Below are positions 2,843 to 42,823 of a stretch of DNA of 64,000 bases, one piece after another; within the stretch, counting starts at the first letter, position 1, and each line of letters starts with the position of its first letter. Made by a program: the position numbers and the translations under genes. This DNA is from Emcibacter sp. (lineage in GTDB: Bacteria > Pseudomonadota > Alphaproteobacteria > Sphingomonadales > Emcibacteraceae): positions 1 through 64,000 of the forward strand of contig JAJFIQ010000003.1 of assembly GCA_021774785.1 (NCBI GenBank), read 5' to 3'. The notes beneath the pieces were generated by a model. That model saw only the letters and a list, made by a program, of their open reading frames with translations, made no database searches and had not been told where the DNA came from.

Positions 2843-3412
2843 CTATATATTAGTAGAGGTAGAGTTCGACTTATATAAAAGGGATTTATTTATAAAATTT
2901 GCATTTATAGAGACAAAACCCCTTCTTCTCCCCAGTGATTTTTTATTAGATAAAGAGTACAAATTTGACCAACCCGATGAAATATGATTCTGTTCCAGTG
3001 GGTCATCAAGCAAACAAATAAATTGAGGTTCTACATTAAACTTTTTTACTGTATTTTCACGGTTCAAAAATGATTTTTTCGTTTTTTTAAAATGCTCATA
3101 TGCCCTTTTATTTTCAAGAGGAAAACTTGGAATATAAAAAGTAAGAACATCAATATCATTTGGTTTATCTTTTTTTTCAATGAAAGAACCTGAAATCCAA
3201 TGAACTATCGACCGGATATCATTTTGTATAAGGTAATTATTCCAGGATATAAAGTTTTGAACCATTTTTTTTCTTAATGCGTTAAATACAAATAACGCAT
3301 TAAACTGTTCTCCATTAATAGGATATGGTGACCCTGAAAGAAATGTTCCGTTTTTATCAAAATGCAGAGAAGGCAATAGCCCATAATCATCAAATTTGAG
3401 CGGAGTTGTCAT
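2843..3412 (-). CDS. Nucleotidyltransferase-like protein (DUF6932-like)
   Basis: The 189-residue protein contains SIVHWISGSFIEKKD followed by KPNDIDVLTF. The GS...DxD arrangement marks minimal nucleotidyltransferases, and the GSFxE-x-PNDIDV form matches the DUF6932-type group. The active-site Gly-Ser and both Asp residues are present; a substrate cannot be read from sequence. The C-terminus is low complexity (LLYKSNSTSTNI) and ends only about 5 bp from the IS3 boundary, so the IS may have replaced the true 3' end. It is the last gene of the minus-strand cluster reading from the sulfotransferase. Some relatives sit in defence or toxin settings; no antitoxin partner is seen here. Confidence 0.6.
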   Translation of the reverse strand: MTTPLKFDDYGLLPSLHFDKNGTFLSGSPYPINGEQFNALFVFNALRKKMVQNFISWNNYLIQNDIRSIVHWISGSFIEKKDKPNDIDVLTFYIPSFPLENKRAYEHFKKTKKSFLNRENTVKKFNVEPQFICLLDDPLEQNHISSGWSNLYSLSNKKSLGRRRGFVSINANFINKSLLYKSNSTSTNI

Positions 3413-3462
3413 GGTGTACCTTTCAGAGAATGGTTACTTTTGTGATTTTTTTTAATCAGTAT

Positions 3463-4191
3463 TTAATTGGCTATTTTTCTATAGGGTCTACCAAAGTCAG
3501 CCTGCTTACGCGCTCGATTAATTTCTGAGAATGTTAGTTTTTTGATCTTGTTTTTGGTACGTGGACGCATATTATTACCCTTGCCCGTCATCAGATTATC
3601 AGGATATTTAGAAGCATGGGGCAAACCCAATGAATGGCCAAGCTCATGGGCGAGAACTTCTGGGCGAAGTTCGCCTCTGGGAGATCTCTCAGCGAAAATA
3701 ACTAAAGGCGGAAAGCCTCTTCTGTTAATATAGATACCTCCGGCATTTTTTGAGAAGCGTTTGATGATACAAACATTCCACCCATGATCAAGCCACTGAT
3801 CCGTAGCACAGACACTAGGTAAAACACTTCTCTTCTTACTAGATTTGTTACTTTTTATTCGGACCGCGTTAAGATATTTCCTTTCATTTGTGGCGGCCCT
3901 TCGCATTATGGATTCTATTTCCCATACTATATGAGCTCTTTTCCAGATTTTATTTACTGCCTGAAACAACTGAGAGATTTGAATGTCAGTCAAGTTACTG
4001 TCAAGATTTGCAATTTTTGTTGAACTTAGAATATGCACCCTGACAGGGAGATAAATATTTTTAGTAGCGTTCTGTGCAAATGAGTAGTGAATAGCTATAA
4101 AGCCCAGACAGGAAAATCCGAAAAATATGATACATTTTTTAAAAAAAGTCTGAGCATAATATATATACCTTTTATTTATTAATTCAGGCAT
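3463..4191 (-). CDS. Secreted or membrane-anchored zinc metalloprotease (metzincin-like)
   Basis: The 242-residue protein has the extended zinc site HELGHSLGLPH (HExxHxxGxxH), with three His ligands and the catalytic Glu, followed by a Met in NLMTGKGNNM that could supply a Met-turn. The N-terminus has a hydrophobic segment (IIFFGFSCLGFIAIHYSFAQ), read as a signal peptide or anchor placing the enzyme in the periplasm or outside. AAGGA lies 8 nt before the ATG. It sits downstream of the Tyr/Ser-rich protein gene, so it may process that protein or another substrate. This is inference from position only. Confidence 0.7.
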   Translation of the reverse strand: MPELINKRYIYYAQTFFKKCIIFFGFSCLGFIAIHYSFAQNATKNIYLPVRVHILSSTKIANLDSNLTDIQISQLFQAVNKIWKRAHIVWEIESIMRRAATNERKYLNAVRIKSNKSSKKRSVLPSVCATDQWLDHGWNVCIIKRFSKNAGGIYINRRGFPPLVIFAERSPRGELRPEVLAHELGHSLGLPHASKYPDNLMTGKGNNMRPRTKNKIKKLTFSEINRARKQADFGRPYRKIAN

Positions 4192-4330
4192 GAATTAATT
4201 CCTTGATACTTCTTACTTAGTCTAATTTGTATGATCAAAATTTCTTACAATTTAAAGTAACTTTACTTTTTTACTAAGTAATGTTCTTTACACTTAGCAA
4301 AGTAAAACCGCTACAATTAAAATAACATAT

Positions 4331-4708
4331 TTAGGAACTGGCCAATTGTGAAGTATGCTTATACTCAAAAGCTCCGTCAGATTTCAAAATAACTTCGTGT
4401 TGTCCGCCAAGATTATGAGTCAGATATCCAAATCTAGACGATTCAATAGCTTTGTTATTCCATAACCCTTTAACGACAATATACCCATCCTGTTTTGGAA
4501 AAAAACGTTTGGAGACGGTTTCTTCTGGTAGCAAGGTGCCTTGCCATCTTATTTCACCAGCTGCCCAAATTTCCACTTTATTTATAGGAAACTTCGATTG
4601 GTTAATGAAATCAACCTTAACAACCGTTAAATTATAATATACAATTATGGCAGTTAGGAGGATGACAGAAACAAATACGCCAATACCAAGCACAATTTTA
4701 TTACCCAT
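4331..4708 (-). CDS. Small membrane-anchored protein of unknown function
   Basis: This 125-residue protein has one N-terminal transmembrane segment (VLGIGVFVSVILLTAIIVYYNL). A short soluble domain follows with alternating hydrophobic residues, probably beta strands (VDFINQSKFPINKVEIWAAG), suggestive of a small periplasmic beta domain. No family is recognised. Its ATG lies 20 bp downstream of the stop of the Tyr/Ser-rich protein gene on the same strand, so the two are probably co-transcribed and it may be an accessory factor for that protein. Confidence 0.6.
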   Translation of the reverse strand: MGNKIVLGIGVFVSVILLTAIIVYYNLTVVKVDFINQSKFPINKVEIWAAGEIRWQGTLLPEETVSKRFFPKQDGYIVVKGLWNNKAIESSRFGYLTHNLGGQHEVILKSDGAFEYKHTSQLASS

Positions 4709-4728
4709 GAATAATCCTTAATATGTCT

Positions 4729-5361
4729 TTATGAACCGGGTGAGGTAACGACATCACCATTGTTTATGGCAGCAACAATAAGCTGAATAGCGTTGCCATC
4801 GGGGTTTTGTTCAAATAAGTCCCTGCCAAAATCATTATTAAATAAATCCATTGCAGATGATGAATCAAAAATAGTACCATTTCGTTCATGTGAATCTGCA
4901 AATGCCTTGGCTCCGTCAACACCTATAGCTTGTGCCATCATAAAGTTCCAGTAAGCATGGCGGAAAGCATCTGCAGCATTATCGCCTTGAGGTCCAGGGA
5001 AAAGAATCTTAGCAAGTTCTTCAGCCACACCGGCTAAATTACCAACTTTGTATGCATCAAAAGGGTTTAATAGTGCGTTTTGCACTTCTGATGGTCCATT
5101 GGGATCAAAATCAAATGCTTGTTGTATTTCCTCATTAGAAGAAGAATAAAAATCCTCGATAAGTAAATCGCCAGAAGAAGAACCCCCAAAGGAAGTATAT
5201 GCTGAACTAGAATAGTAAGAACTTGATGAACTAGGGTAGTAAGAACTTGAACTAGAATAGTAAGAACTTGATGAACTAGGATAGTAAGAACTTGAACTAG
5301 AGTAGTAAGAACTAGAGTACCAACTAGTATCAGACGAACCATAATAATAACTATCACTCAT
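4729..5361 (-). CDS. Tyr/Ser-repeat protein with a DUF6973-like C-terminal domain; candidate type I secretion substrate
   Basis: The 210-residue protein splits in two. Residues 1-56 are almost only Ser and Tyr, alternating YYS5 and YYPS5 units, with 15 tyrosines by residue 55. Residues 120-200 form a folded helical domain with GDNAADAFRHAYWNFMMAQA, KAFADSHERNG and DLFNNDFGRDL, resembling DUF6973-type domains. There is no signal peptide, although secretion is likely because a type I exporter is encoded divergently 2.4 kb away. A strong ribosome site (AAGGAGAG) precedes the ATG. The neighbouring sulfotransferase suggests that hydroxyls in the repeat are sulfated. The domain assignment comes from motif memory, not from a search. 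Confidence 0.7.
   Translation of the reverse strand: MSDSYYYGSSDTSWYSSSYYSSSSSYYPSSSSSYYSSSSSYYPSSSSSYYSSSAYTSFGGSSSGDLLIEDFYSSSNEEIQQAFDFDPNGPSEVQNALLNPFDAYKVGNLAGVAEELAKILFPGPQGDNAADAFRHAYWNFMMAQAIGVDGAKAFADSHERNGTIFDSSSAMDLFNNDFGRDLFEQNPDGNAIQLIVAAINNGDVVTSPGS
5167..5346 (-). repeat. Coding tandem repeat (Tyr-Tyr-Ser units)
   Basis: The DNA repeats AGTTCTTACTA-CCTAGTTCATCA and AGTTCTTACTATTCTAGTTCA blocks in tandem, producing alternating YYPS5 and YYS5 units. The copies are nearly identical at nucleotide level, so the tract could change length by slippage or recombination. The reading frame survives loss or gain of whole units. Confidence 0.8.
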
Positions 5362-5444
5362 TTTTTCTCTCCTTTTTATTTAGTAATTAATTTAATTTTT
5401 AATCGCAAAGATTACTCATAGAAATAAACTATAGCTTACTCTTT

Positions 5445-7427
5445 TCATTCACAGAATTTAGGTTTAAGCGTGTTGATTAGACCTGACAAATGTTTCTCAA
5501 AATGTTGCCATTGTTCTACTGAATCTGAATAAATGGGTAATCTCACCTGTTCTGAACTGACCGTACGTACGGGGCGTTTTGTATTATAAAATTCAAGACA
5601 GGCATCTTCAAAAGATAACCCACAAAAATCTAGAATACGGCGAACTTGATTTTTAAAATCGCCAACAACCTCCTCATATTGTACGTGTAAAATTCTCTCA
5701 GGGAGCTGTTCCTGCCAATGTTCCATTAAATCCACATAATTGTTGTAATAATGAGCTAAATGCTCAAGGTCATAGGTAAAAGCCTGCCCCTGTGAGTATA
5801 GCTGTTTGTAATTACTTAAACCTGCACCCATAGGGTGGCGCCGAGCATCAATAAATTTTGCATTGGGGAGAATAAGGTGAATAAAACCAATATTTAGAAA
5901 ATTTCCAGGCATTTTATCAATAAAATAAGGGGCTCCTTTACGCAGAGGCATGGTCCGTTCAATATATTTTTCGCCCAGACTGCAAAACTGGATACTTTCA
6001 AGGTTACTCAGTCGCTCACACTCTCCCTTTCGGGCATAAGGACCCATTACCTTATGGTAAATTTGAGCAATGTCCCCCAACTCCATCGTTCCGTCAACTT
6101 TTGAGTGGCTAGCAAGTATTTGTTCCAGTAAAGTGGAACCTGATCTAGGTAATCCCAGAATGAAAATCGGCGCAGCATCCATACACCCTTTATATGCGTG
6201 TTTAGAAAAGAAATCTGAGTCCCAAGACCGCATTTTTTCATTTATTTTTTCAGAAAAAAATTCAGGATTAAAATTGAATTCCTGTTTTTTTATGTCATTT
6301 CCTATTTTGTAATATTTGAATGAAACGTCAAATTCTTTTTTATCTTCATACGCCTTGCCCAAAGCAAAGCACAGCGGGACATATCCATGATGGTTTAAAT
6401 CCATGTTATCAAGTGCGCTTTTCATTTCCGTTATATCGCTCTCCATAAACGTAAACTTCTTTAAATTGGCTAGACTGACATATGCTTGAGGACGTCGTGA
6501 AGTAATCGTACGAAAAGAGGCTATGGCTTCAGATTGGTTGCCAATTAATCTCTGCGCAAAACCTAGGCCCATCAAAAGAGCGGGGTTTTTAGGAAATAGT
6601 GTCAAGGCATGTTGATAATGTTTGCACGCCTCCTCATTCTGTCCACTATGAGAAAGAATAGTACCTTTCAAATTTAGGTACTTTATTGCCCTTGGCCGGG
6701 ACCTAAGTAAAACATCTATTTCCTCTAACGCCCTGTCATATTCATATTGTTCTAGTAATACCTTAGCATAATCCAACCGAGCTTGTTTGTTTGAAGGGTC
6801 CAATACCAAGCATTTTTCCAGCAGCTCAGAAGCATTATCATATGATGAACGCCGGGCTGCAATTTGTGCCATCATACGTAGAGCATTTGGATTGTTTGGG
6901 TTGATTTTCAGGTATTGTTGACAGATTTTTGCTGCTTTATTAATTTTATTTTTGCGAAGTAATACAGGAACCTTACTGAGGTCAAAATCTGATACATAAA
7001 GCTCCATGTATTTGGATTTTGCATGCTCTGCCTTCTCTATATTATTTGCTTCAGCAAAAATTTCTGACAGTGCTTTCCATCCCATTGCATATTCAGATTC
7101 AACTTTAATAATTTTTTCAAATATGTTTATCGCTTTGAGGTAGTCATTGCCTTGGCGATAACAGAAACCTAATTCCTTAAGAATTTCAATATCATCCAAG
7201 TCTTCATGATGTGCCGACAGTGCAAACTTTAAAGCCTGAGTAACATTTCCTTGTGAGCGTAAGGATATTGCTTTTAAAAAAAGGATTCTGGCAAGTGGGG
7301 CATTATTATCATTGAGCAACTCATCAGCTTTTTTTTCAACTATGTCTGGCCGTTGTAATAATAAAATAGCATTATTTGAGATAGTTTCATTTAAAGGTAA
7401 GTCTAATAATGAGCTGGCATCAAACAT
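5445..7427 (-). CDS. TPR-repeat sulfotransferase
   Basis: About 660 residues. The first 350 form tetratricopeptide repeats (for example LKELGFCYRQGNDYLKAINIFE and NLKGTILSHSGQNEEACKHY). The C-terminal half is a Sulfotransfer_3-type domain: FILGLPRSGSTLLEQILASHS near residue 425 is the 5'-phosphosulfate-binding loop for PAPS, and KFIDARRHPMGAGLSNYKQL fits the 3'-phosphate-binding region. TPR-sulfotransferases are proposed to modify proteins held by the TPR groove; protein-tyrosine sulfotransferases share the PRSGST loop. The ATG at 7427 was preferred over the upstream GTG at 7439 because GGGGG lies just before it. The Tyr/Ser-repeat gene follows 83 bp downstream on the same strand and is the obvious candidate substrate. 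Confidence 0.85.
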   Translation of the reverse strand: MFDASSLLDLPLNETISNNAILLLQRPDIVEKKADELLNDNNAPLARILFLKAISLRSQGNVTQALKFALSAHHEDLDDIEILKELGFCYRQGNDYLKAINIFEKIIKVESEYAMGWKALSEIFAEANNIEKAEHAKSKYMELYVSDFDLSKVPVLLRKNKINKAAKICQQYLKINPNNPNALRMMAQIAARRSSYDNASELLEKCLVLDPSNKQARLDYAKVLLEQYEYDRALEEIDVLLRSRPRAIKYLNLKGTILSHSGQNEEACKHYQHALTLFPKNPALLMGLGFAQRLIGNQSEAIASFRTITSRRPQAYVSLANLKKFTFMESDITEMKSALDNMDLNHHGYVPLCFALGKAYEDKKEFDVSFKYYKIGNDIKKQEFNFNPEFFSEKINEKMRSWDSDFFSKHAYKGCMDAAPIFILGLPRSGSTLLEQILASHSKVDGTMELGDIAQIYHKVMGPYARKGECERLSNLESIQFCSLGEKYIERTMPLRKGAPYFIDKMPGNFLNIGFIHLILPNAKFIDARRHPMGAGLSNYKQLYSQGQAFTYDLEHLAHYYNNYVDLMEHWQEQLPERILHVQYEEVVGDFKNQVRRILDFCGLSFEDACLEFYNTKRPVRTVSSEQVRLPIYSDSVEQWQHFEKHLSGLINTLKPKFCE

Positions 7428-7746
7428 TCTGTCCCCCACTTAACTTTATAGATAGGAATTTACTAATTTTTATGAGCACGGCTGGTATTAATTTTATTTA
7501 TTTATTCTATTATAGCTTGTCTAAAATATAATAAATTTCTCATTAATATTTTTAGAATTGCACCTATGCCCTAAAAAATAGTATTCTATTATTTTATTAT
7601 TCTATATAGTGATGTTTTAAAATAAATGTCAATCAAAGAAATAAATAATAGTATTTTAATCAATTTTAGCTGTACATAATAGGTAGGTGCTACTAAACAT
7701 TCTATATATCCAATTGTGTGCTCCATAAAGGTTTAGAAGGGTTAGT
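7428..7746. promoter_or_regulatory. AT-rich divergent intergenic region
   Basis: About 320 bp of very AT-rich DNA separate the sulfotransferase (minus) and the type I secretion ABC gene (plus). It must hold promoters for both transcripts. I see several TATAAT-like stretches (for example TATTATAGC near 7509) but no single convincing pair, no palindromic operator and no additional gene. Confidence 0.4.
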
Positions 7747-9516
7747 ATGAGGCCAAATATTTCAGGAAAAAAGACCTTAAATGGGCGTAGAAGTATAAAT
7801 GTTCCCTCGGCTATTATGGCTAAGCAACTTAAATCTCTTTTAAAGAACCTTTTTCTTACTGCGTGTATTTCAAGTTTTTTCATCAATATTCTAACCTTAG
7901 CCGGTCCAATATATATGTTACAAATATACGACAGGGTTCTCACAAGTAGAAGTTTGGAAACACTGGCCGCTCTTACTGTTCTATTAGTTGTTATTTATAT
8001 TTCTATGGGAATATTGGAGACTGCCCGCGATGCTCTATTCCAACGTATATCTTTAAGAATCGGGCGTTTCTTGGCAACTCCTGTATTCGCAGAAGCTGTA
8101 AAATCTGCCGGAAAGCTTATGTCTTCTTCTGCAAATGAAGTTACTCAGGATTTGCAGAAAATTAAAAGATTCATTAGCGGCCCTTCTCCCACTGCTTTTC
8201 TTGATGCCCCTTGGGCTATTATCTTAATAACATTTATCTGGTTTATTCATTGGACATTAGGCGTGGTAGCACTTGTTGGTGCCATAGTTCTGTTTGCTCT
8301 GGCCGTTGCCAATCGTTTCTTTTCCCGATCTGCTTTTGAAGCATCTGCGGTGATGGCATCAAAGGCAAATTCCTGGGCAAGAACCACATATAGAAATACA
8401 GATACAGCTATTCCATTGGGGATGCTTGCCGACATCGGTAGAAGGTGGAAAGAAATGCAAGACCAAGCGGCTTTGGAATCAGTAAGGGCTGGAGATATAA
8501 ACGGGAGGTTTTCCGGGGCCATAAAAACTCTGAGAATGATGCTGCAATCCCTGATTTTAGGAGCGGGTGCTTTGCTGGTTATTCAGGACATTATTACCCC
8601 AGGCATGATGATTGCCGTTTCATTAATGTTAGGACGTGCCTTGGCACCTGTTCAACAACTTGTTACGCAATGGCGTTCGATTACAGAAACTGCAGCCTCA
8701 TATGCTCGACTACGCAAAGTAATAAACCAGCATGAACTAAATCACGAAAAACCCTTGCAAATGTTAACTCCAAAAGGAGCATTAAGGGTCCAAAAAGTTT
8801 TTGCTGCCCCCCCCGGAATGGAAAAACCGTTTTTAAAAAACATCAATTTTATTATTGAGCCTGGACAGATGGTTGGGATAATTGGCTCTAGTGGTTCTGG
8901 AAAATCCTTGCTTGCCAGAATTGTTGTAGGGGCATGGTCTCCTATTAGAGGACATGTGCGCCTTGATGGAGCTTCTCTGGATAATTGGGATAATAGTGAG
9001 TTCGGACGGAATATTGGTTTTATGCCACAGGATATTGAACTTTTTCCTGGAACTGTAAAAGAGAATATTGGCCGCTTTCGTCTGGATATTTCATCTGAAT
9101 CAGTTGTTGGCGCTGCTATAACTGCCGGCATCCACGATTTAATATTAAGCTTTCCTAAAGGGTACGACACACTTGTAGGTGAAAGTGGTATGCGTATATC
9201 AGGGGGAGAGCGTCAACGAATAGCTTTTGCACGTGCCTTATATGGAGATCCTCCTTTTATTGTATTGGATGAACCTAATTCCAACCTGGATTCTGAAGGA
9301 GAAAAGGCGCTTAATAGAGCCCTCACACAATTAAAAACACAAAAAAAATCAATTATTGTGATTTCCCATAGATGTGAAGCTTTCACAGAAATTGATAATT
9401 TTCTTATACTTGATCAAGGACGAATAAAGTATTTTGGTCCTCAAAATGAAATACCTGAAAGACAAGACATTCAGCGGAGAAGACTGGCAGGGAAACGCCA
9501 AAGTCTAACATTCTAA
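7747..9516 (+). CDS. Type I secretion ABC transporter, PrtD family
   Basis: The 589-residue protein is an inner-membrane exporter half-unit. The membrane domain has PIYMLQIYDRVLTSRSLETLAALT, the usual PrtD-family N-terminal signature. The ATPase has Walker A GSSGSGKS (about residue 380), Q-loop GFMPQDIELFPGT, signature ISGGERQRIAFARAL, Walker B FIVLDEPNSNLD and an H-loop in ISHR. There is no C39 peptidase domain, so substrates with an uncleaved C-terminal signal are expected rather than double-glycine peptides. AGAAGGG precedes the ATG. The membrane-fusion gene follows 24 bp downstream. No outer-membrane TolC-like gene is in the window, so a TolC encoded elsewhere is needed. Confidence 0.9.
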   Translation: MRPNISGKKTLNGRRSINVPSAIMAKQLKSLLKNLFLTACISSFFINILTLAGPIYMLQIYDRVLTSRSLETLAALTVLLVVIYISMGILETARDALFQRISLRIGRFLATPVFAEAVKSAGKLMSSSANEVTQDLQKIKRFISGPSPTAFLDAPWAIILITFIWFIHWTLGVVALVGAIVLFALAVANRFFSRSAFEASAVMASKANSWARTTYRNTDTAIPLGMLADIGRRWKEMQDQAALESVRAGDINGRFSGAIKTLRMMLQSLILGAGALLVIQDIITPGMMIAVSLMLGRALAPVQQLVTQWRSITETAASYARLRKVINQHELNHEKPLQMLTPKGALRVQKVFAAPPGMEKPFLKNINFIIEPGQMVGIIGSSGSGKSLLARIVVGAWSPIRGHVRLDGASLDNWDNSEFGRNIGFMPQDIELFPGTVKENIGRFRLDISSESVVGAAITAGIHDLILSFPKGYDTLVGESGMRISGGERQRIAFARALYGDPPFIVLDEPNSNLDSEGEKALNRALTQLKTQKKSIIVISHRCEAFTEIDNFLILDQGRIKYFGPQNEIPERQDIQRRRLAGKRQSLTF

Positions 9517-9540
9517 TAGGAAGTTAAAATATAGCAAAAC

Positions 9541-10851
9541 ATGAGTCTAAAAAAAATATCTATAAACATCCAGAATGATGGTGGGAAACTATACTGTTTT
9601 ATCTCAGGCTTCGTCATAATAGTAGTACTTGGCGGACTTCTTCTGTGGTCGATTTTAGCTACACTAGAAGGAGCAGTTGTTTCACCTGGAAAGTTAGTGG
9701 TCGAATCAGATCTAAAAGAAATTCAACACCTAGAAGGAGGAATTGTAAAAGAGATACTTATACAGGAAGGGGACTTTGTCAAGAAAGCTCAACTTATGGT
9801 ATTGTTGGATGCCACAAGAGGTGTATCGGAACTGTCAATTCTTGAAAACGATTATTTTGAAAATTTAGCGAAGAGGGCAAGACTTTATGCGGAAATTAAT
9901 ATTGATGATGACATTGTTTTTCCCCTAGAATTAACTCAGAATAATTACAAGAACATTAATGAAACCCTTAAGCGCCAGAGCCAAATCTTTTATGCTCGTA
10001 AGGGGTCTATCAAAAATGAGGTCAATATTAATAATAACCGTATTGTTCAATATCAATATAGAATTAACGGGCTCAAAGCACAAAAAGAAGCATTGGAAAG
10101 AGAATTTGAACTTGTAAAAGAGCAAAATGAAGAATTAAGTGGTCTATTTGAAAAAGGCTTGATAGCAAAAACAAGAATCATATCCTTGAAACAGGAAATT
10201 GAACGATTAATAGGATCTATAGGACTATCAGATGCGACAATTGCTGAAATTTCGGGTATGATTGAGAGTGTAAACTTGGATACGCTAAAACTTCGCAAAT
10301 CTTTTTTGGAAGAAATACTTTTCGAGCTGCAAGAAACTGAGACCATTATTGCACGTTTAAAAGACCAGATTATTACTTCAAACGATATTATCAAGCGTTC
10401 AAAAATATACGCCCCGCGTTCTGGTCGCATCATTAACCTTAAAGTCAACACTATTGGAGAAGTCGTTACACCAGGCTCGTTATTAATGAATATTGTTCCC
10501 ATTGATGAAAACCTTGTTATAAGAGCTTATATTAAACCTGACAAAATTGATAAAATTATTAAAGGTGGCCCCGCTTGGATTCGATTCACGGCTTTCAACA
10601 AAAAACAAACACCGGTGTCGACTGCGGTAGTAAAAAATATTTCAGCTGATGTTATTTTTGGTTCTGATTCAAGAGAAGAATATTATCAAGTTACTCTAGA
10701 TCTTACAGAAGATGTAAGTGATCTCTTTCAAGGCCGCCCTCTGATACCGGGAATGCCAGTTGAAGTTTATATAAAAACTGAAAAAAGAAACGCCCTTTCC
10801 TATTTTACGCAACCCTTTACCGATGCACTATCTCGAGCTTTCAATGAATAG
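9541..10851 (+). CDS. HlyD-family membrane fusion protein of the type I system
   Basis: The 436-residue adaptor has one N-terminal transmembrane helix (FISGFVIIVVLGGLLLWSILATL). The lipoyl/barrel halves are SPGKLVVESDLKEIQHLEGGIV near the start and IYAPRSGRIINLKVNTIGEVVTPG near residue 300, separated by a long coiled coil. These are features of PrtE/HlyD proteins that bridge the ABC protein and TolC. It is co-transcribed with the upstream ABC gene (24-bp gap). With the divergent sulfotransferase and Tyr/Ser-protein genes it forms a compact export module. Confidence 0.9.
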   Translation: MSLKKISINIQNDGGKLYCFISGFVIIVVLGGLLLWSILATLEGAVVSPGKLVVESDLKEIQHLEGGIVKEILIQEGDFVKKAQLMVLLDATRGVSELSILENDYFENLAKRARLYAEINIDDDIVFPLELTQNNYKNINETLKRQSQIFYARKGSIKNEVNINNNRIVQYQYRINGLKAQKEALEREFELVKEQNEELSGLFEKGLIAKTRIISLKQEIERLIGSIGLSDATIAEISGMIESVNLDTLKLRKSFLEEILFELQETETIIARLKDQIITSNDIIKRSKIYAPRSGRIINLKVNTIGEVVTPGSLLMNIVPIDENLVIRAYIKPDKIDKIIKGGPAWIRFTAFNKKQTPVSTAVVKNISADVIFGSDSREEYYQVTLDLTEDVSDLFQGRPLIPGMPVEVYIKTEKRNALSYFTQPFTDALSRAFNE

Positions 10852-11039
10852 AAGGTGCTATGAAACTGTTACATATATAAACTTTCAAAGGCGAAGTATC
10901 TTAATTGGTCAGTCCTAAAAAAGCATTGAAACCTTCTAAAATTGGGGGTATTATCGGTGCACCAATACCGTACAAAACTGGGAACTAATGTGGATTTGAA
11001 GTGATTACAGTAGAGGTAGGCAGTCGGAGTATAGTTTGA

Positions 11040-11063
11040 GTTCAAATCCTGCCCCCGCAACCA
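11040..11063 (+). other. Displaced 3' end of initiator tRNA-fMet (putative att site)
   Basis: The 24 bases GTTCAAATCCTGCC plus CCCGCAACCA match the T-loop, 3' T-stem, acceptor strand and encoded CCA of bacterial initiator tRNA. The 5' part of the tRNA is missing: the T-stem partner and upstream arms do not fold. Such isolated tRNA 3' ends are created when an element integrates into a tRNA gene and duplicates its end. With the tRNA reading on the plus strand, the intact gene would lie to the left, putting the element on that side. Confidence 0.65.
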
Positions 11064-11348
11064 CGGTAACAGGTCAATCTTTTACAACACAGCCGCTCAA
11101 ACACAAAAGGTCGTTATAGCAACAGGTGGTACGCAAGTGGCACGCAACTCATGCATAAAACCTTGGTTTCCTGCATACCCAAGTCCACGAATGCGTGCCA
11201 ATGCATACTCAAATCATTGATTTCACTCATCTTCAACTTCGTTGACATTGACGTGGTTGTGTTTGGCGTTGTGGCTAATTCGGTGAGGTAGTAGAAAATA
11301 AGTCTCTGGCGCATACAGGCCATTCTATGTTACATTGATATTTCACAT

Positions 11349-22636: not shown

Positions 22637-22695
22637 TCCCAGTCCAGGGTTTGATCATGTCAGGCCTTGGTCATTCAGGACATAGAGGCCACACA

Positions 22696-23628
22696 ATGAC
22701 AACGCAAAAACCCATTCTCCCTTATAATTCACTTCTGCATATGCGGGAGCCTGACCACACCACAATAATGGATACCCGCTTTGGTGAGTATGACGATGGA
22801 GGGAGCCGTCATGACGTCAGTAACGGGAATGATAATTCCACATGGGAACATAAATATCGGCAGGAATTTTCCAGGGCCTATAATCTAAATAGTTTTTGTC
22901 TTCATATCGGCCAGTCTCTGCGGTTCATGGGTTTTGATGAATATTCCCTTTATTATCTGGAAAACAATCGCAGGCCCTTTATCTCTATTTTCACCACAAT
23001 GGCTGAAGACGATATCAATGCTTATTTTGGTGACTCTCAGTGGCAGCATGACCCCATAAGAGATTATGTTATAAAAGAAAAGGGGGACATTCTGCTGTCC
23101 ACCATAAAAAAGTATTTTGATGAATGTCCCTTCCAACTAGAATCCCTTTGTTGTGCGCAGGTAATGTTTGATCATCTGAAATCTTTCGGTTATCGCGATA
23201 TGTATATTATCCCCCGCCGTGATCCGGGAAGTGAAAGCTGTCTTGTCCTGACGGTTGCGACCAAAGACCAGAATATAGAGGAGTTTCACAGGCTTGTATC
23301 CGAAAACGGTTCTCGCCTGCGGTCTCTTGTCACCGCCATAGAATATGTCGGGATCGGGAAATTTCCGGATATCTTTCGGGACCAAAATGAAAGAAACCAA
23401 ATTCAGATAGGTTCGAACTCTCTTGAACTTTTGCGGATCATGGTTCGGGATGACTTGAAATTGATTGACGCAGCAATGCAGATGAATGTTAGTAGAGATA
23501 TTGCAAATCGCTGGATTAAATCTGTTAAAAACGCATTGAATGCAGATACCACTGCAAGAGCCATTTATCTCGCGACTAAAGCCGGGCTAATTGAGGAAAA
23601 GAACTCTGGTAAGGAATGCCATTCCTGA
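22696..23628 (+). CDS. LuxR-family regulator, divergent type (paralogue 1)
   Basis: About 310 residues. The N-terminal part resembles an autoinducer-binding domain (FSRAYNLNSFCLHIGQSLRFMGFDEYSLYYL; the conserved Asp is kept in WQHDPIRDY). The C-terminal helix-turn-helix, LKLIDAAMQMNVSRDIANRWIKSVKNALN...TTARAIYLATKAGLI, is LuxR-like but lacks the usual TPRE motif. The start at 22696 is set by AGAGG 7 nt upstream; two earlier starts lack a site. The HTH coding DNA is nearly identical to that at 35.5 kb, showing recent duplication or gene conversion. It lies just upstream of the ABC exporter and lasso operon and is their best candidate activator. Confidence 0.75.
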   Translation: MTTQKPILPYNSLLHMREPDHTTIMDTRFGEYDDGGSRHDVSNGNDNSTWEHKYRQEFSRAYNLNSFCLHIGQSLRFMGFDEYSLYYLENNRRPFISIFTTMAEDDINAYFGDSQWQHDPIRDYVIKEKGDILLSTIKKYFDECPFQLESLCCAQVMFDHLKSFGYRDMYIIPRRDPGSESCLVLTVATKDQNIEEFHRLVSENGSRLRSLVTAIEYVGIGKFPDIFRDQNERNQIQIGSNSLELLRIMVRDDLKLIDAAMQMNVSRDIANRWIKSVKNALNADTTARAIYLATKAGLIEEKNSGKECHS

Positions 23629-24021
23629 AAATCTTCCGCCAAAAAATTATTGAAACAGAAGTTGCACGACGGCTTTACTAATTTATTTTAGTTCCTTAAC
23701 TGCTTGTAATGAAGTACGCGGCGCACGATCTGATCGCCATAGCCTCGTGAACAAGACATTATAGAGCCGACAGCATCCTGAAGTTTCTGTCATTTTTACT
23801 CAAACTGATTCTAATATTTTGTACTTTTATCGATGGATAGAAGTCTATTGTTTGCGATTTAATTTTAAAATCAGGCCTTTTATCCATTAAGAACAAAATA
23901 TTTAATTTCTAACTATCTGCAATTACAGAATTATTCTGTCAATCCCCCAACCTATAGGTGTTTTCATTGTTTTGCATCTGTTTCATAATGGCTTTCAAAT
24001 ATTTAATTGAAGCGGAAACAT
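23629..24021. promoter_or_regulatory. Intergenic region with quorum-sensing-type promoter
   Basis: About 390 bp, AT-rich, with no gene. Its right part holds the promoter block shared with luxI (23931-23990). Confidence 0.6.
23931..23990 (+). promoter_or_regulatory. Promoter block shared with luxI: ACCTATAGGT box, -35 and -10
   Basis: Sixty bases match 41911-41970 at 56 positions without gaps; the first 35 are identical. The block contains the 10-bp palindrome ACCTATAGGT (23950-23959), abutting a weak -35 TTTTCA (23961-23966). A 17-bp spacer then leads to -10 CATAAT (23984-23989). A palindrome touching a weak -35 is the layout of LuxR-activated promoters. Confidence 0.75.
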
Positions 24022-25914
24022 ATGATTTCAACATTACGACGAGCAATATCATTGGGTTGGGAAGAAGCGGATGGCTTTGTTAAAAAGCGTCTTATGGTTG
24101 TTGTGGCTTTTGTAATAATCACCGCCGTATTTTCGGCACTAGCACCCGTTGCTTTAAAGTATGCCGTTGATGGGTTGGGAACGGGAGAGTTTAAACCCCT
24201 TGATGTGAAAATTTTTCAGGACTGGGGCATCTCTGCTCCATCCTCTGTTATAATTGTTCCAGCACTTTTCATCCTCATTTATATATTCAGTCTTTGGCTT
24301 GCCCGAAGCAGCGGTGAACTCCGATGGTATTTTTATGGCACGGCTGATCAGAGATTACACCGTAATATTAGCCGCCGCCTGTTTGATCACGTTCTGAAGC
24401 TGCCAATGGCGTTTCATCTTGACCGTCAAACTGGTGCCTTAAATCAGACTTTGGCGCAGGGCATAGCAGGATATAGTATTCTGTTCAATCATTTGGTTTT
24501 TACTATCTTTCCGGTCATTATAGAAATTGCCCTCATTAGTGCGGTGTTGGCAGTATTTCTGCCACCGAGCTTTATTATCATTCTGTTGTTATCCGTCATC
24601 GGCTATGGCGTTGTGTTCGCCATTGGGGTTGCTCAGATTACAGGCCCGAGCCGTGAAATTTCTTCAACCCAGATTGAGGCCTATGCGGCTCTGACAGATA
24701 GTATTCTCAATAGTGAAACGGTAAAATATTTCACCGCCGAAAATTATATCAATGAACATTATGATAACAGATTGGCCACTGCAGAAAGCGGGTGGGCGAA
24801 ATTTTACGCCTGCAAAACCCAAAATGGATTGCTGGTGGCTTGCGTCTTTGCCTTGTCGCTTGGATCTGCCATCACCCTCGCTGCAAGCCAGGTGATGCAG
24901 GGCCACATGACAATCGGAGACTTTGTGCTCATTAACGCATATATGCTTCAGATCATTCGGCCGATGGAACAATTGGGCGACGCCTTCAAGAGTATTGTTC
25001 ATGGTATTACTTTTATTGAAAAGATGTTGGTTCTTCTGGACAAGAAAACTGAAATTTTTGAGAATATTAAACCCATTGGCTCTTCAATCTCATTTCCATT
25101 AATTGATGGTAAAAAGTTTCCAACCGGTCAGGGCGGTGAGCTGGTCTTTGATCATGTGATATTTTCCTATTGCCTTGATCGGCTGGGACCCCATGACAAG
25201 TATAAACCAGTGCTTAGAAATATTAGCTTTACCATTAAGCCGGGAAAGATCACGGCCATTGTAGGCAGTAGCGGTGCCGGCAAGTCTTCTATCATACGGC
25301 TACTACTCAGGTTCTTTGAACCTGATCATGGCGACATCATGTTAAATGGCATATCGCTACAGGATATTCCTTTATCTGACCTGCGGCAGTATATCGCCGT
25401 GGTGCCGCAAGATACGGTTCTGTTTAACAATACTATTGCCTATAACATCGGCTTTGGCAAACAAGGATGCAATCAGGCAGAAATCGAACAGGCCGCGAAG
25501 AAGGCTCATATCCATGACAAGATCATGGCCATGCCCAGGGGATACCAGACCATAGTCGGCGAGAGAGGGCTGAAGCTTTCCGGTGGTGAAAAGCAACGGA
25601 TATCCATTGCGCGAGCTTCCCTCATGAATCCCCGGGTTTTTGTATTTGATGAAGCAACCAGCTCCCTGGATACCAAAACCGAACGACAGATACTTGATAA
25701 CCTGATTACTGTGGCAAAAAACACGACAACACTGATGATTGCCCATCGTTTGTCAACCGTGATCCATGCTGATGAAATACTGGTACTGGATCAGGGCGAA
25801 ATTATTGAGCGTGGCAACCATCAACTTTTACTTCAGATTGATGGGACGTATTCAGCCATGTGGAGGAGCCAACAAAAGGACCGAAAGGTCATCAAAATAC
25901 ACCATCAGAATTGA
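24022..25914 (+). CDS. Atm1-type ABC exporter, first gene of the lasso peptide region
   Basis: The 630-residue half-transporter has about six membrane helices with the Atm1/HMT1 motif RLFDHVLKLPMAFHLDRQTGALNQTL. The ATPase has Walker A GSSGAGKSS (about residue 415), VVPQDTVLFNNTIAYNI, LSGGEKQRISIARA and VFDEATSSLDT. Family members export glutathione-linked or peptide cargo; the McjD lasso exporter is a different ABC subgroup. ATG at 24022 was chosen over an in-frame TTG at 24007. It stands 290 bp before the lasso precursors, under a promoter shared with luxI. It is therefore a candidate peptide exporter and immunity factor, an inference from position. Confidence 0.8.
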   Translation: MISTLRRAISLGWEEADGFVKKRLMVVVAFVIITAVFSALAPVALKYAVDGLGTGEFKPLDVKIFQDWGISAPSSVIIVPALFILIYIFSLWLARSSGELRWYFYGTADQRLHRNISRRLFDHVLKLPMAFHLDRQTGALNQTLAQGIAGYSILFNHLVFTIFPVIIEIALISAVLAVFLPPSFIIILLLSVIGYGVVFAIGVAQITGPSREISSTQIEAYAALTDSILNSETVKYFTAENYINEHYDNRLATAESGWAKFYACKTQNGLLVACVFALSLGSAITLAASQVMQGHMTIGDFVLINAYMLQIIRPMEQLGDAFKSIVHGITFIEKMLVLLDKKTEIFENIKPIGSSISFPLIDGKKFPTGQGGELVFDHVIFSYCLDRLGPHDKYKPVLRNISFTIKPGKITAIVGSSGAGKSSIIRLLLRFFEPDHGDIMLNGISLQDIPLSDLRQYIAVVPQDTVLFNNTIAYNIGFGKQGCNQAEIEQAAKKAHIHDKIMAMPRGYQTIVGERGLKLSGGEKQRISIARASLMNPRVFVFDEATSSLDTKTERQILDNLITVAKNTTTLMIAHRLSTVIHADEILVLDQGEIIERGNHQLLLQIDGTYSAMWRSQQKDRKVIKIHHQN

Positions 25915-26204
25915 GTTCTGCTGGGAGTAAAATAGAGGCATAAAAACGACTCGACGCCAATATTTATCCTGACTTGAGAATGCGGATCAGGGACTGAGTA
26001 AGCGCGTTTGTTTTTTTGAAATTGTTCAACTTTTATGTGGCTTGACGGGCAGGTAAGAGCAGGGTGGTCTATGGTGTGAAATAATAAGAATTTAGGAAAA
26101 AAACTATTATATATCAATAGCTTGACTCATTAGTAAAAATTATTTTAACATAACATTGCCGGAATGTTCCGGCGAAATTTAACTCTAATCTGAAAGGAAA
26201 TATT
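25915..26204 (+). promoter_or_regulatory. Leader region and promoter of the lasso precursor genes
   Basis: TTGACT at 26122-26127, a 17-bp spacer and TTAACA at 26145-26150 form a plausible sigma-70 promoter. The 14-bp inverted repeat CCGGAATGTTCCGG at 26159-26172 sits just after the -10, where a repressor could act. AAAGGA (26193-26198) is the ribosome site of the first precursor. Confidence 0.5.
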
Positions 26205-26294
26205 ATGATTAATCTTGGAAAAGTATCTGAAGTGACTATGGGTCCACTTCAAGGCTTTGAAATAGATGCTTTTGGTGCAAATAAGCGCCTGTAA
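26205..26294 (+). CDS. Lasso peptide precursor A1
   Basis: The 29-residue ORF reads leader MINLGKVSEVTM and core GPLQGFEIDAFGANKRL. The leader keeps LGxxSxxT, with Thr at the penultimate leader position as lasso B1 and B2 enzymes need. The core starts with Gly and has Glu7 and Asp9; by analogy with astexin-1 (GLSQGVEPD ring) a Gly1-Asp9 nine-residue ring is most likely, giving an 8-residue tail. The leader is unusually short, 12 residues; the frame is open for 17 codons upstream but has no credible start there. AAAGGA 6 nt before the ATG fixes the start. The B and C genes follow 230 bp later. Confidence 0.88.
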   Translation: MINLGKVSEVTMGPLQGFEIDAFGANKRL

Positions 26295-26332
26295 GTGATC
26301 TGATAGATCCTCGTTAACATAACGAAGGTCTA

Positions 26333-26356
26333 GGTGCGCGGTTTATACCGCGTACC
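26333..26356 (+). other. Stem-loop between the two lasso precursor genes
   Basis: GGTGCGCGGT - TTAT - ACCGCGTACC forms a 10-bp stem with one G-U pair. It is followed by TCCTT and nine A, not a U-tract. It may stabilise or punctuate the precursor mRNA, raising A1 over downstream enzyme genes. Confidence 0.6.
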
Positions 26357-26379
26357 TCCTTAAAAAAAAAGACATTAAA

Positions 26380-26472
26380 ATGATTAACCTTGGAAGAGTA
26401 TCAACACTGACTATGGGCCCCCTTTCTGGCACAGAAATAGATGGTGCTGGTCAGTATAAGCGCATGTTGTAA
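26380..26472 (+). CDS. Lasso peptide precursor A2
   Basis: The 30-residue ORF reads leader MINLGRVSTLTM and core GPLSGTEIDGAGQYKRML. It is a paralogue of A1: leaders match at 9 of 12 positions and cores share GPL-G-EID---G--KR. Thr-2, Gly1 and Asp9 are kept; the tail is one residue longer and its tail residues differ (GQY for GAN, plus a Met before the last Leu). Two precursors with a constant ring and variable tail suggest two related products from one enzyme set. The ribosome site is weak (an A-rich stretch after CCTCCTT), so relative expression may differ from A1. Confidence 0.88.
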   Translation: MINLGRVSTLTMGPLSGTEIDGAGQYKRML

Positions 26473-26527
26473 GGCGACTAGCTAGATACTAATCAAATGA
26501 GAAGGTACTAGAACATATAGGTGAAAT

Positions 26528-27295
26528 ATGACGTCACATTCTACCCAGTATTATTTGCCTAAAGGTGTTTTCCTTTGCGTTGTAGATGCACTTGTTGTGT
26601 TTCTTGATTTGCATAATGATAAATATATCAGTCTGGAACCGGAAAGAACCACAGCTCTCCTTTCACTCTTATCAATCAGACCAGAGTCTCTGCATTCTTC
26701 AACTCTCAGCGTGCTCAAACGAAATGCCAGGAATTGGGATAAAGAAACCGATCAGGAAGACTTTGATATCATGGATATTGCAGAGGATTTGGTCACGCAA
26801 AATCTTTTAACCACTGATCCGACTGTTGGTGCTGAAGCAAGTTTGACGATAATAGATATCCCGCCCTTGGATTTGTCAGGATACGAATTTGGCAAGACCC
26901 CAATCATAAAGGTTGGACATATTTTCAAGTTTTTTATGGCCTGTTGTGCAGCTTCTTTCAATTTGCGTTTTTTTTCTACAGAAAAGGCCGTAAAGTCAGT
27001 CAAAAAAGCGAGAAACGGGCACTATAAATCCACATCTTCAGATTTGGATAAGATTAGAGACCTTGTGGAAATTTATAATATTTTAAAGCCACTATTCTTC
27101 ACTGCCAAAGACAATTGTTTATTTGATTCTCTGGCCTTAATTAAATTTATGGAACGTTTTGACATATATCCAACATGGGTATTTGGTGTGAAAATGGGGC
27201 CATTTTTAGCTCACTGCTGGGTGCAGGATGATAATTTTATCTATAACGAAGCACTTGATCAGGCACATAGGTTTACGCCAATCATGGCAGTGTAG
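26528..27295 (+). CDS. Lasso peptide leader-binding and leader peptidase protein (fused B1-B2)
   Basis: The 255-residue protein combines two domains. Residues 1-95 are a PqqD/RRE-like leader-binding domain (GVFLCVVDALVVFLDLHNDKYISLEPE). Residues 125-255 are a transglutaminase-like cysteine protease: Cys197 in DNCLFDSLALIKFM and His229 in GPFLAHCWVQ. The spacing of 32 equals that of the McjB Cys-His pair; the third residue is probably the acid in IYNE. It cuts after the leader Thr-x to free Gly1. The fused form is normal in proteobacteria. It is followed 20 bp later by the cyclase gene. Confidence 0.88.
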   Translation: MTSHSTQYYLPKGVFLCVVDALVVFLDLHNDKYISLEPERTTALLSLLSIRPESLHSSTLSVLKRNARNWDKETDQEDFDIMDIAEDLVTQNLLTTDPTVGAEASLTIIDIPPLDLSGYEFGKTPIIKVGHIFKFFMACCAASFNLRFFSTEKAVKSVKKARNGHYKSTSSDLDKIRDLVEIYNILKPLFFTAKDNCLFDSLALIKFMERFDIYPTWVFGVKMGPFLAHCWVQDDNFIYNEALDQAHRFTPIMAV

Positions 27296-27315
27296 TAAAA
27301 AAAGGATTTTCAGAA

Positions 27316-29142: not shown

Positions 29143-29146
29143 TAAT

Positions 29147-31570: not shown

Positions 31571-31671
31571 TGAGAACCCGTATCTGCCTCCCCCCCTTTT
31601 TTGATATGCTGGAAAACAAATCAGGGAAGCAAATTGTACGGTGATAACGCGTTAATATTTAAGCGTGATAA

Positions 31672-34374: not shown

Positions 34375-34795
34375 TAGACACTTTAAGCTTGTTTGATCAA
34401 TAACTCAAAATGCACATAATTATTAAGTATTGAATACTGAGTTAATTTTCTAATAGTTGAAATTTTTACGCTCAGCATTTGCAAGGAAGACAGTATAAAA
34501 GTTCTCTTCCCCCACATATGTGCGCGAAGTTTTTCGCACATATGTGGTCATTTTTATTTATGCAGAAGAGACGATTGATATTATCTTCTGTCACACCAAA
34601 TGGGTGATTTTACGCACTTAACTGTCTTCTTTAGGAGAGCGCGGTTTCGGTTCCTCAACTGAGATGGCTGATGCAAACGAGAGGCAAGCAGGATTTCACT
34701 GAAGAATTCTTTTGCATCTTTTCAGAATTATTGCCGTCAGTGGCTCAGGGAGTAGATAAAAGTTGTTTGATAAGTATTAATTGCGGGAGATTGTA
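34375..34795. promoter_or_regulatory. Divergent control region between STN receptor and luxR-P450 operon
   Basis: About 420 bp without a gene. It carries the double palindrome at 34512-34547 and must hold promoters for both divergent transcripts. No copy of the ACCTATAGGT block was seen here. Confidence 0.5.
34512..34547. promoter_or_regulatory. Inverted repeat made of two CACATATGTG palindromes
   Basis: CCACATATGTGCG and CGCACATATGTGG form 13-bp perfect inverted arms around 10 nt. Each arm itself holds the 10-bp palindrome CACATATGTG (34513-34522 and 34537-34546), with centres 24 bp apart. In a divergent promoter region this fits two operator sites better than a terminator. Confidence 0.55.
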
Positions 34796-35647
34796 TTGAC
34801 TGAAAGTATATCCATAAATTCGAGCTTGAATTCACGAGGAACCGATATCATCAAAGGGTATGGCAAGACTTCCGTTACTATTTCCGAATTAGAAGCCAAA
34901 TATTGCCAGGAACTATCTTTGGCCAGAGATATAAATCAATTTTATATGCATATAGGAATAACTCTGCGGTATATGGGTTTCTCCGAATATTCATTTTCCA
35001 GATTGGCAGCCAAGTCTGAAATTCCTGTCCCTTTATTTACCATGCCCTTAGAGATGAACAACATCTATTTTGCCGACGCTCATTTCGAATGTGATCCCGT
35101 AATTCAGTATGTGTTAGCTAATGATAAACCCATCTTCTTGTCCGATATTAAGAATTCTATCGAATCCCTTGCATATGACACAGAAATAACCAAGCGCAAC
35201 AAAGAGATGTTCGCTCTATTGAAAGCCTATGGTTATAATGATTTTTACTTTATTCCTGTCAAAGCATCCAACGATAACGGTACAGTTATGCTGGCGGTTG
35301 CCACAAAATCCCAGGATTTACGTATGTTTCGTAACCTTGTTAAAAAAATGAAATCTCAATTGACAGCTCTTGTAAAAGCAATTGATTTTGTAGGTACCAA
35401 AAAGTTTCCGGCTTTTTTTCTGAGTGAACTTGAAGGCAACCATTACCTGATAAATCCGGAGCGTCTCGAACTTCTGCAGATCATGGTTCGGGATGATTTG
35501 AAACTTATCGACGCCGCAAAGCGGTTAAACGTTAGTAGAGATATTGCAAATCGCTGGATTAAATCCATTAAACGCACATTGCAAGTAGATACGACCGCGA
35601 GAGCTATATATCTAGCCGTAAAAGCAGGACTTATAGATGAAAAATAA
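34796..35647 (+). CDS. LuxR-family regulator, divergent type (paralogue 2)
   Basis: About 283 residues with the same layout as paralogue 1. The ligand-domain-like N-terminus (DINQFYMHIGITLRYMGFSEYSF, FECDPVIQYV) and HTH (RLNVSRDIANRWIKSIKRTLQ...TTARAIYLAVKAGLI) are shared. A TTG start at 34796 has GGGAG 6 nt upstream. A run of about 34 nucleotides over the recognition helix is identical to paralogue 1, so both may bind the same DNA site. It is first in an operon with the P450 and a TonB receptor (37- and 23-bp gaps). Confidence 0.75.
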   Translation: MTESISINSSLNSRGTDIIKGYGKTSVTISELEAKYCQELSLARDINQFYMHIGITLRYMGFSEYSFSRLAAKSEIPVPLFTMPLEMNNIYFADAHFECDPVIQYVLANDKPIFLSDIKNSIESLAYDTEITKRNKEMFALLKAYGYNDFYFIPVKASNDNGTVMLAVATKSQDLRMFRNLVKKMKSQLTALVKAIDFVGTKKFPAFFLSELEGNHYLINPERLELLQIMVRDDLKLIDAAKRLNVSRDIANRWIKSIKRTLQVDTTARAIYLAVKAGLIDEK

Positions 35648-42822: not shown

Positions 42823-42823
42823 T

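What the first reader, a model, noticed from the sequence alone, without database searches (positions are those of the whole stretch)
2843..10851. Putative sulfated Tyr/Ser-repeat protein with its own sulfotransferase and type I exporter
Seen: a protein whose first 55 residues hold 15 Tyr in YYS5/YYPS5 units lies directly after a TPR-sulfotransferase gene with an intact PRSGST PAPS loop. It is divergent from a PrtD/HlyD exporter and followed by a secreted zinc protease. Known: Xanthomonas RaxST sulfates a Tyr of RaxX, which is exported by the RaxABC type I system. Inference: this is a separate arrangement in which many repeat hydroxyls (Tyr, perhaps Ser) are sulfated before export, yielding a highly anionic surface or secreted protein.
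Basis: partly seen in the sequence, partly recalled or inferred. Interest (0 to 1): 0.85.

Follow-up and report, generated by a model that had tools for sequence, protein, structure and literature searches.

The report
Wnt-fold toxin locus with sulfotransferase
The protein with the odd tyrosine/serine-rich start looks like an antibacterial toxin whose working end shares its fold with animal Wnt proteins, encoded with a likely immunity protein, a protein exporter and an enzyme that may decorate the tyrosines with sulfate.

Summary
In detail: 15 Tyr and 31 Ser in the first 55 residues, beside a TPR-sulfotransferase and a divergent PrtD/HlyD exporter. The reading needs changing. The rest of the protein is Pfam DUF6973, which models as a Wnt/serum-amyloid-type Lipocone domain (Z 12.9 to the B. 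fragilis T6SS effector BteO, 10.7 to a Wnt) and keeps the published active-site pattern. Elsewhere DUF6973 ends phage MuF and WXG100-like proteins, and 72 of 80 homologous genes precede a small ORF with a hydrophobic N-terminus (control 73 of 933). So this is best read as a polymorphic-toxin locus, not an anionic surface-protein system. Sulfation remains possible but untested: the enzyme's nearest solved relatives include human protein-tyrosine sulfotransferases, and it groups with a clade mostly paired with TonB receptors (38 of 47) that carry acidic Tyr-rich loops. No other locus combining toxin, tract, sulfotransferase and exporter was found in the sets searched. New variant of a known kind.

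The parts
4729..5361 (-). Tyr/Ser-tract Lipocone (DUF6973) protein, 210 aa; putative toxin and putative sulfation and T1SS cargo
5197..5361 (-). Tyr/Ser-rich tract, residues 1-55 (15 Y, 31 S); DNA tandem repeat at 5203-5314
4762..5076 (-). DUF6973 / Wnt-SAA-type Lipocone domain, residues 96-200
   Evidence: Pfam 1.1e-23; coordinates; fold; profile hit to BteO 2.9e-10
4331..4708 (-). Putative immunity protein, 125 aa: one N-terminal TM-like helix and an eight-stranded beta domain
5445..7439 (-). TPR-sulfotransferase, TPST-like catalytic domain; real start probably the ATG at 7427
7747..9516 (+). PrtD-type type I secretion permease/ATPase, no C39 domain match
   Evidence: TIGR01842 640.9 bits, cut-off 510.15
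9541..10851 (+). HlyD-family type I secretion adaptor
   Evidence: TIGR01843 318.6 bits, cut-off 208.65
3463..4191 (-). Secreted metzincin-like zinc protease (HELGHSLGLPH), N-terminal signal-like segment; role in the locus uncertain
   Evidence: sub-threshold M10/M12/M6 matches; motif and signal read by eye
2843..3412 (-). DUF6932 protein; membership in the locus doubtful
   Evidence: Pfam 1.7e-19

Best explanation
A probably horizontally acquired antibacterial effector-immunity locus. The 210-aa protein is a small polymorphic toxin: a Min-Wnt/SAA-type Lipocone domain that would attack the phosphate-linked head group of a membrane or carrier lipid (lipid II or a phospholipid) on the periplasmic side of a competitor, preceded by a flexible Tyr/Ser tract. 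The 125-aa protein, anchored in the inner membrane with a periplasmic domain, is its immunity protein. The toxin has no visible Sec signal and is most likely exported by the divergent PrtD/HlyD system. The TPR-sulfotransferase most likely sulfates tyrosines of the tract in the cytoplasm before export, giving an anionic N-terminus that could help export, solubility, surface retention or receptor binding. Shown by computation: domain identity, active-site residues, the usual gene pairing of this domain, a TPST-like enzyme. Inferred: toxicity, lipid target, type I export, sulfation and its purpose. My odds: toxin plus immunity 0.8; export by this T1SS 0.5; Tyr sulfation of the tract 0.35.
For: DUF6973 at 1.1e-23. 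The modelled domain (pLDDT 83.5) matches BteO Z 12.9, a Wnt8 complex 10.7, Wnt3a 9.9, SAA3 8.1; a profile search finds 9uu0 at 2.9e-10 and Wnt-7a at 0.0024. The SAW-clade features given in PMC12419801 (sections 5, 7 and 9 read) are present: His in H2 (FRHAYW), Glu at the end of H3 (HE), Asp in H4 (MDL), NxxGR, and a fifth helix. DUF6973 ends a phage portal-MuF protein, a DUF4226 protein and a WXG100-like protein (the last below cut-off). A downstream ORF with a hydrophobic N-terminus follows 72 of 80 homologues against 73 of 933 control ORFs. The 125-aa protein is a distant relative of such partners (E 1.1e-4 in a set of 668 sequences) and models as TM helix plus beta domain. Sulfotransferase: TPST2 at E 4.9e-6 with R, E and K aligned (their catalytic role is recalled). 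It groups (SH-aLRT 99) with 47 enzymes, of which 38 lie beside a TonB receptor (1 of 58 outside); 14 of 15 adjacent receptors over 500 aa carry DY[ST]xY, 0 of 22 other receptors of this genome do.
Against: No other locus joining these parts was found, so the link rests on one arrangement. PrtD/HlyD genes (over 100 bits) were in none of 60 fetched chromosomal regions around related TPR-sulfotransferases (56 with the enzyme's ORF recovered) and in 1 of 13 plasmid regions; the 9 other best PrtD loci of the order, some on short contigs, showed no sulfotransferase hit. The toxin has no RTX match and ends 10 residues after the domain, so no classical C-terminal T1SS signal is apparent. The tract region has 5 acidic residues in 76, unlike typical TPST sites (recalled). 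Of 43 viral DUF6973 loci, 31 lack a hydrophobic downstream ORF and many are small stand-alone phage proteins, so the domain alone does not prove a bacteriocin. The immunity match is only E 0.15 when the closest partner is left out of the model. One of 3 receptors not adjacent to an enzyme in the surveyed loci also has DY[ST]xY.
Confidence: 0.55

Rival explanations
1. Toxin-immunity locus in which the sulfotransferase does not touch the toxin. The enzyme acts on a glycan, lipid or another exported protein, and the Tyr/Ser tract is only a flexible linker expanded by DNA repeats.
For: Tract DNA is a tandem repeat. T1SS/sulfotransferase neighbourhoods on two roseobacter plasmids also carry glycosyltransferase or sugar-nucleotide genes. 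The enzyme's closest group has TonB receptors, not toxins, as usual neighbours. Few acidic residues in the tract.
Against: No glycosyltransferase ORF recognised in this locus. The enzyme gene is immediately upstream of the Tyr-rich gene in the same direction. A Tyr fraction of 27% is not expected of a neutral linker. The partners of the enzyme's closest group are also exported proteins with Tyr clusters.
Confidence: 0.4
2. One reading: a secreted or surface protein made highly anionic by sulfation of many Tyr/Ser, a separate Rax-like arrangement without toxin function.
For: TPR-sulfotransferase, exporter and Tyr-rich protein adjacent; TPST-like enzyme.
Against: About half of the protein (residues 96-200) is a conserved Lipocone domain with intact active-site motif, followed by an immunity-type gene. 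Nothing found here speaks for Ser sulfation.
Confidence: 0.08
3. The exporter, the sulfotransferase and the DUF6973 pair are unrelated genes brought together by mobile elements; the DUF6973 protein reaches its target by lysis or acts in antiviral or intracellular conflict.
For: Low-GC stretch (31-44% per kb against 47-51% in the kilobases next to it) beside a group II intron/IS3 and conjugation genes; phage stand-alone DUF6973 proteins exist; no conserved linkage elsewhere.
Against: Tight same-strand spacing sulfotransferase-toxin-immunity (83 and 20 bp) and the divergent exporter sharing one 307-bp upstream region suggest one unit.
Confidence: 0.2

Closest known systems
Lipocone (Min-Wnt / prok-SAA) polymorphic toxins, PMC12419801
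   Same: Same fold, active-site pattern and C-terminal toxin position; TM or lipoprotein immunity proteins; published members with T4SS, T6SS, T7SS, T9SS and MuF hallmarks and, by RTX fusion, T1SS (passages)
   Different: Very small protein with a Tyr/Ser tract instead of a known trafficking domain; sulfotransferase gene; non-RTX
BteO, Bacteroides fragilis T6SS effector (PDB 9uu0)
   Same: Closest solved relative by sequence profile and fold
   Different: T6SS context; only 24-25% identity
RaxX-RaxST-RaxAB of Xanthomonas, PMC6637879
   Same: Sulfotransferase and type I exporter beside a Tyr-containing secreted product; enzyme modelled on TPST2
   Different: RaxX is a 60-residue double-glycine-leader precursor with one named sulfated Tyr; here a 210-aa toxin-like protein, TPR-fused enzyme, exporter without a peptidase match
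Cdz contact-dependent bacteriocin of Caulobacter, PMC5380434
   Same: T1SS-exported antibacterial proteins with a TM immunity protein in divergent operons in an alphaproteobacterium
   Different: CdzC/D are 86- and 84-aa glycine-zipper proteins thought not to be modified
TPR-sulfotransferase / TonB-receptor gene pairs of Alphaproteobacteria
   Same: Closest relatives of the sulfotransferase (about 40% identity)
   Different: Partner is an outer-membrane receptor, not a toxin and T1SS

Membership tests
Lipocone SAW clade (Min-Wnt/SAA) | Conserved His (H2), Glu (H3), Asp (H4) and sNxxGR motif | tested here: met
   H59, E83, D96, N100, G103 invariant in the 5 rows of A1, the R in 4 of 5; definition from PMC12419801
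Lipocone SAW clade (Min-Wnt/SAA) | All-helical core with a fifth helix | tested here: met
   Helices 24-44, 48-70, 72-82, 91-109, 115-124; Z 12.9/10.7/9.9/8.1 to BteO, two Wnts, SAA3. Helical models can reach high Z by chance, but the six BteO/Wnt/SAA rows stand clear of the rest (4.2 and below)
Polymorphic toxin / effector-immunity pair | Toxin domain shared between several delivery contexts | tested here: met
   Phage portal-MuF, DUF4226, WXG100-like and PG-binding-like N-termini (the last two below cut-off)
Polymorphic toxin / effector-immunity pair | Small cognate immunity gene directly downstream | tested here: met
   72 of 80 cellular homologues against 73 of 933 controls; window gene 4331-4708. 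In viral contigs only 12 of 43
Polymorphic toxin / effector-immunity pair | Toxicity and neutralisation | not testable with these tools
   needs expression experiments
Type I secretion cargo | RTX repeats or C-terminal secretion signal | tested here: not met
   DUF6973 is the only Pfam match at E 0.05; the protein ends 10 residues after the domain. A non-classical signal is not excluded
Type I secretion cargo | Adjacent ABC and MFP genes | tested here: met
Rax-type sulfated peptide system | Exporter that removes a double-glycine leader | tested here: not met
   No Peptidase_C39 among Pfam matches of the ABC protein; no GG leader seen in the 210-aa protein; leader removal by RaxB from PMC6637879 passages, its C39 domain recalled
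Protein-tyrosine sulfotransferase | PAPS loop and R/E/K residues equivalent to TPST2 | tested here: met
   Aligned; catalytic role and human numbering (R78, E99, K158) are recalled. The best single hit is a polyketide-synthase sulfotransferase (4gox, 3.8e-6), so the class is not decided
Protein-tyrosine sulfotransferase | Tyr acceptor activity | not testable with these tools
   needs enzyme assay

The most novel reading that the evidence does not exclude
A lineage of bacterial TPR-fused, TPST-like sulfotransferases sulfates tyrosine clusters on exported proteins: in most members the acidic Tyr-rich surface loop of a partner TonB receptor, and here a Tyr/Ser array grafted onto a Wnt-fold bacteriocin, so that the toxin leaves the cell as a polysulfated protein.
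Probability: 0.25. Interest if true: 0.85.

Novelty: new variant of a known kind. Interest (0 to 1): 0.6.

Why it matters
The one bacterial protein named as tyrosine-sulfated in the papers I saw is RaxX (listing, passages; I did not search for others exhaustively). A toxin with its own TPST-like enzyme, and a large related group of enzyme/receptor pairs with Tyr-rich loops, would give an easily testable case for wider protein sulfation in bacteria. Independently, a Wnt-fold toxin with a membrane-anchored immunity protein beside a non-RTX type I exporter would extend how Lipocone toxins may be delivered.

Tried and rejected
Rax homology: rejected on exporter and cargo. Hidden small RaxX-like peptide: ORFs of 25 aa and more around the exporter, read by eye, showed no convincing Tyr peptide. 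Tyr/Ser repeat elsewhere: a pattern for YYxSSSSYY hit 17 of 367 alphaproteobacterial genomes at 21 places; two are in this gene and none of the other 19 encodes four consecutive Ser (other spacings would be missed). A T1SS beside related sulfotransferases: 0 of 60 fetched regions (56 with the enzyme's ORF recovered); not every match listed was fetched. Tyr density alone does not separate sulfotransferase-linked TonB receptors from others in this genome (7 against up to 7 per 50); the DY[ST]xY loop does, but those receptors are one subfamily, so the rows are not independent. No tRNA found by ARAGORN. Papers: DUF6973 in none of the held library; 'BteO' in 8 papers, all on other subjects by title; tyrosine sulfation with bacteriocin in 6, four on Xanthomonas Rax/Ax21 or XA21 and two unrelated; TPR, sulfotransferase and T1SS together in none; sulfotransferase with TonB-dependent and tetratricopeptide in one unrelated. 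DUF6973 against INPHARED phages: no match at E 1e-3. Foldseek alone gave BteO only E 0.95, prob 0.97. The fold search of the 125-aa protein gave only a low-identity best match to an uncharacterised E. rectale protein (2mca, 3.3e-4) and a mixed list of beta-rich proteins, nothing that names a function.

Full report
What is there. On the minus strand from 7439 down lie a TPR-sulfotransferase (5445-7439), a 210-aa protein with a Tyr/Ser-rich start (4729-5361), a 125-aa protein (4331-4708), a secreted metzincin-like protease (3463-4191) and a DUF6932 protein (2843-3412). Divergent from the sulfotransferase, across 307 bp, are a PrtD-type ABC exporter and an HlyD adaptor. The region is AT-rich (GC 31-44% per kb from 3001 to 11000, against 47-51% in the three kilobases to the left and the two to the right; other parts of the window, such as 41001-42000, are AT-rich too). 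It lies near coupling-protein and relaxase-like genes and beside a group II intron and IS3-type integrase. Contig C677 of genome G036, of the same order, has the length and the DUF6973 and partner proteins of L068, a record titled Sphingomonadales, so the window is probably from a Sphingomonadales relative (inference).

The repeat. Residues 1-55 hold 15 Tyr and 31 Ser; the first 76 residues hold no Lys or Arg and five acidic residues. The tract is a DNA tandem repeat. A degenerate pattern for YYxSSSSYY occurs twice here and nowhere else with four Ser codons among 367 alphaproteobacterial genomes.

The domain. Residues 96-200 are Pfam DUF6973. A profile from five family members finds the B. fragilis T6SS effector BteO (9uu0) at 2.9e-10 and, weakly, Wnt proteins (Wnt-7a 0.0024). 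The AlphaFold model (pLDDT 83.5) aligns to BteO (Z 12.9), Wnt8 and Wnt3a structures (10.7, 9.9) and serum amyloid A (8.1, 7.8, 7.7), clear of the next rows at 4.2 and below. Foldseek alone was weak (E 0.95). The Lipocone paper (PMC12419801; abstract, sections 5, 7 and 9 and search passages seen) defines this group: His/Glu/Asp in helices 2 to 4, an sNxxGR motif and a fifth helix, predicted to act on phosphate-linked lipid head groups, used as toxin tips, with TM or lipoprotein immunity proteins. The sequence features are present. The term DUF6973 does not occur in that paper's main text.

Toxin context. DUF6973 was found in 9 of 289 alphaproteobacterial genomes including this one, 8 over the family cut-off. 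A genome-collection scan found 462 relatives and kept the best 80. In 72 of 80 there is an ORF of 80-400 aa with a hydrophobic N-terminus starting at the end of the gene (61 of them lipobox-like by a loose motif), against 73 of 933 control ORFs of the same loci (many loci are close relatives, so they are not independent). N-termini include a phage portal fused to a MuF domain (3.4e-87 and 1.8e-8), DUF4226 and, below cut-off, WXG100. In the portal-MuF locus the partner is a recognisable relative of the window's 125-aa protein (26% identity, 41.6 bits). An HMM of alphaproteobacterial partners finds the 125-aa protein at 1.1e-4, above every decoy, but only at 0.15 when that closest partner is left out (best decoy 0.21). 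It models as one helix and eight strands (pLDDT 85.7). Against this, 31 of 43 viral DUF6973 loci have no such ORF, and many are stand-alone phage proteins of 131-154 aa (several contigs are near-copies). In none of the 80 cellular or 43 viral loci was there a sulfotransferase hit or a PrtD/HlyD hit over 100 bits, and no DUF6973 protein exceeded 6 Tyr per 50 residues.

The sulfotransferase. Its catalytic domain is closest among solved structures to a polyketide-synthase sulfotransferase (4gox, 3.8e-6) and to human protein-tyrosine sulfotransferase 2 (4.9e-6), with R, E and K aligned. In a quick-method tree of 106 enzymes the window copy is a long branch that groups with 47 others (support 99) and branches first among them (support 92 for the other 47); its composition was flagged as unusual. 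Of those 47, 38 have a TonB receptor within 1.5 kb; of the 58 outside the group, 1 has (the receptor references come from the group itself, so the test favours it). This genome has three such pairs, and its three closest receptors of this subfamily are all beside an enzyme. Of 15 adjacent receptors longer than 500 aa, 14 carry DY[ST]xY in a Tyr-rich loop; none of 22 other receptors of this genome does, and 1 of 3 non-adjacent receptors in the surveyed loci does. These receptors are one subfamily, so this is a suggestion, not proof, that Tyr clusters on exported proteins are what this lineage modifies. Among 13 plasmid regions with other TPR-sulfotransferases the enzyme lies next to or within a few genes of an autotransporter in three, a TonB receptor in three, and a porin, flagellin, a metalloprotease or a T1SS with a calcium-binding protein in one each; three show no obvious exported neighbour. 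T1SS genes were in 1 of these 13 and in 0 of 60 chromosomal regions.

Judgement. The locus is best read as a Lipocone toxin with its immunity gene, probably using the divergent type I exporter, and with a sulfotransferase that may modify the tract. The toxin reading is well supported by computation. The export and sulfation steps rest on adjacency in a single locus and on enzyme kinship. Papers seen only as passages: PMC6637879, PMC5380434, PMC5576092, PMC11699363.

Noticed in passing
window 24007-34374: Looks like a lasso-peptide-type cluster: ABC exporter (24007-25914), transglutaminase-like protein (26528-27295), asparagine-synthase-like protein (27316-29142), prolyl-oligopeptidase-like protein (29147-31570) and an STN-type TonB receptor (31672-34374). 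Read by eye, not searched.
   Followed up: no
window 22651-23628, 34781-35647, 41998-43702: Several LuxR-like regulators and a LuxI-like autoinducer synthase (41998-42822), read by eye.
   Followed up: no
G000 contigs C8, C18, C25 (L193, L209, L188) and many relatives: Conserved gene pair: TPR-sulfotransferase with a TonB-dependent receptor that has an acidic Tyr-rich loop (DYTxY...YY). Function unknown.
   Followed up: partly
L270 3538-9254 (Sulfitobacter mediterraneus plasmid P5): TPR-sulfotransferase beside a PrtD/HlyD T1SS, a DUF6447 protein, a glycosyltransferase and a calcium-binding protein.
   Followed up: partly
L271 5947-8957 (Paroceanicella profunda plasmid): TPR-sulfotransferase homologue next to flagellin inside a flagellar gene cluster.
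   Followed up: no
L310-L341 (viral contigs): Many phages carry small stand-alone DUF6973 proteins, some just upstream of a terminase-like gene, without an immunity-like neighbour.
   Followed up: no
L052/L068 (Sphingomonadales MAG): Phage portal protein fused to MuF and DUF6973 with a small lipoprotein-like partner gene: a phage-encoded toxin candidate.
   Followed up: partly
window 11040-11066: Sequence resembling the 3' end of a tRNA (GTTCAAATCCTGCCCCCGCAACCA) near the right edge of the AT-rich stretch; ARAGORN finds no tRNA. Possibly an integration-site remnant.
   Followed up: no
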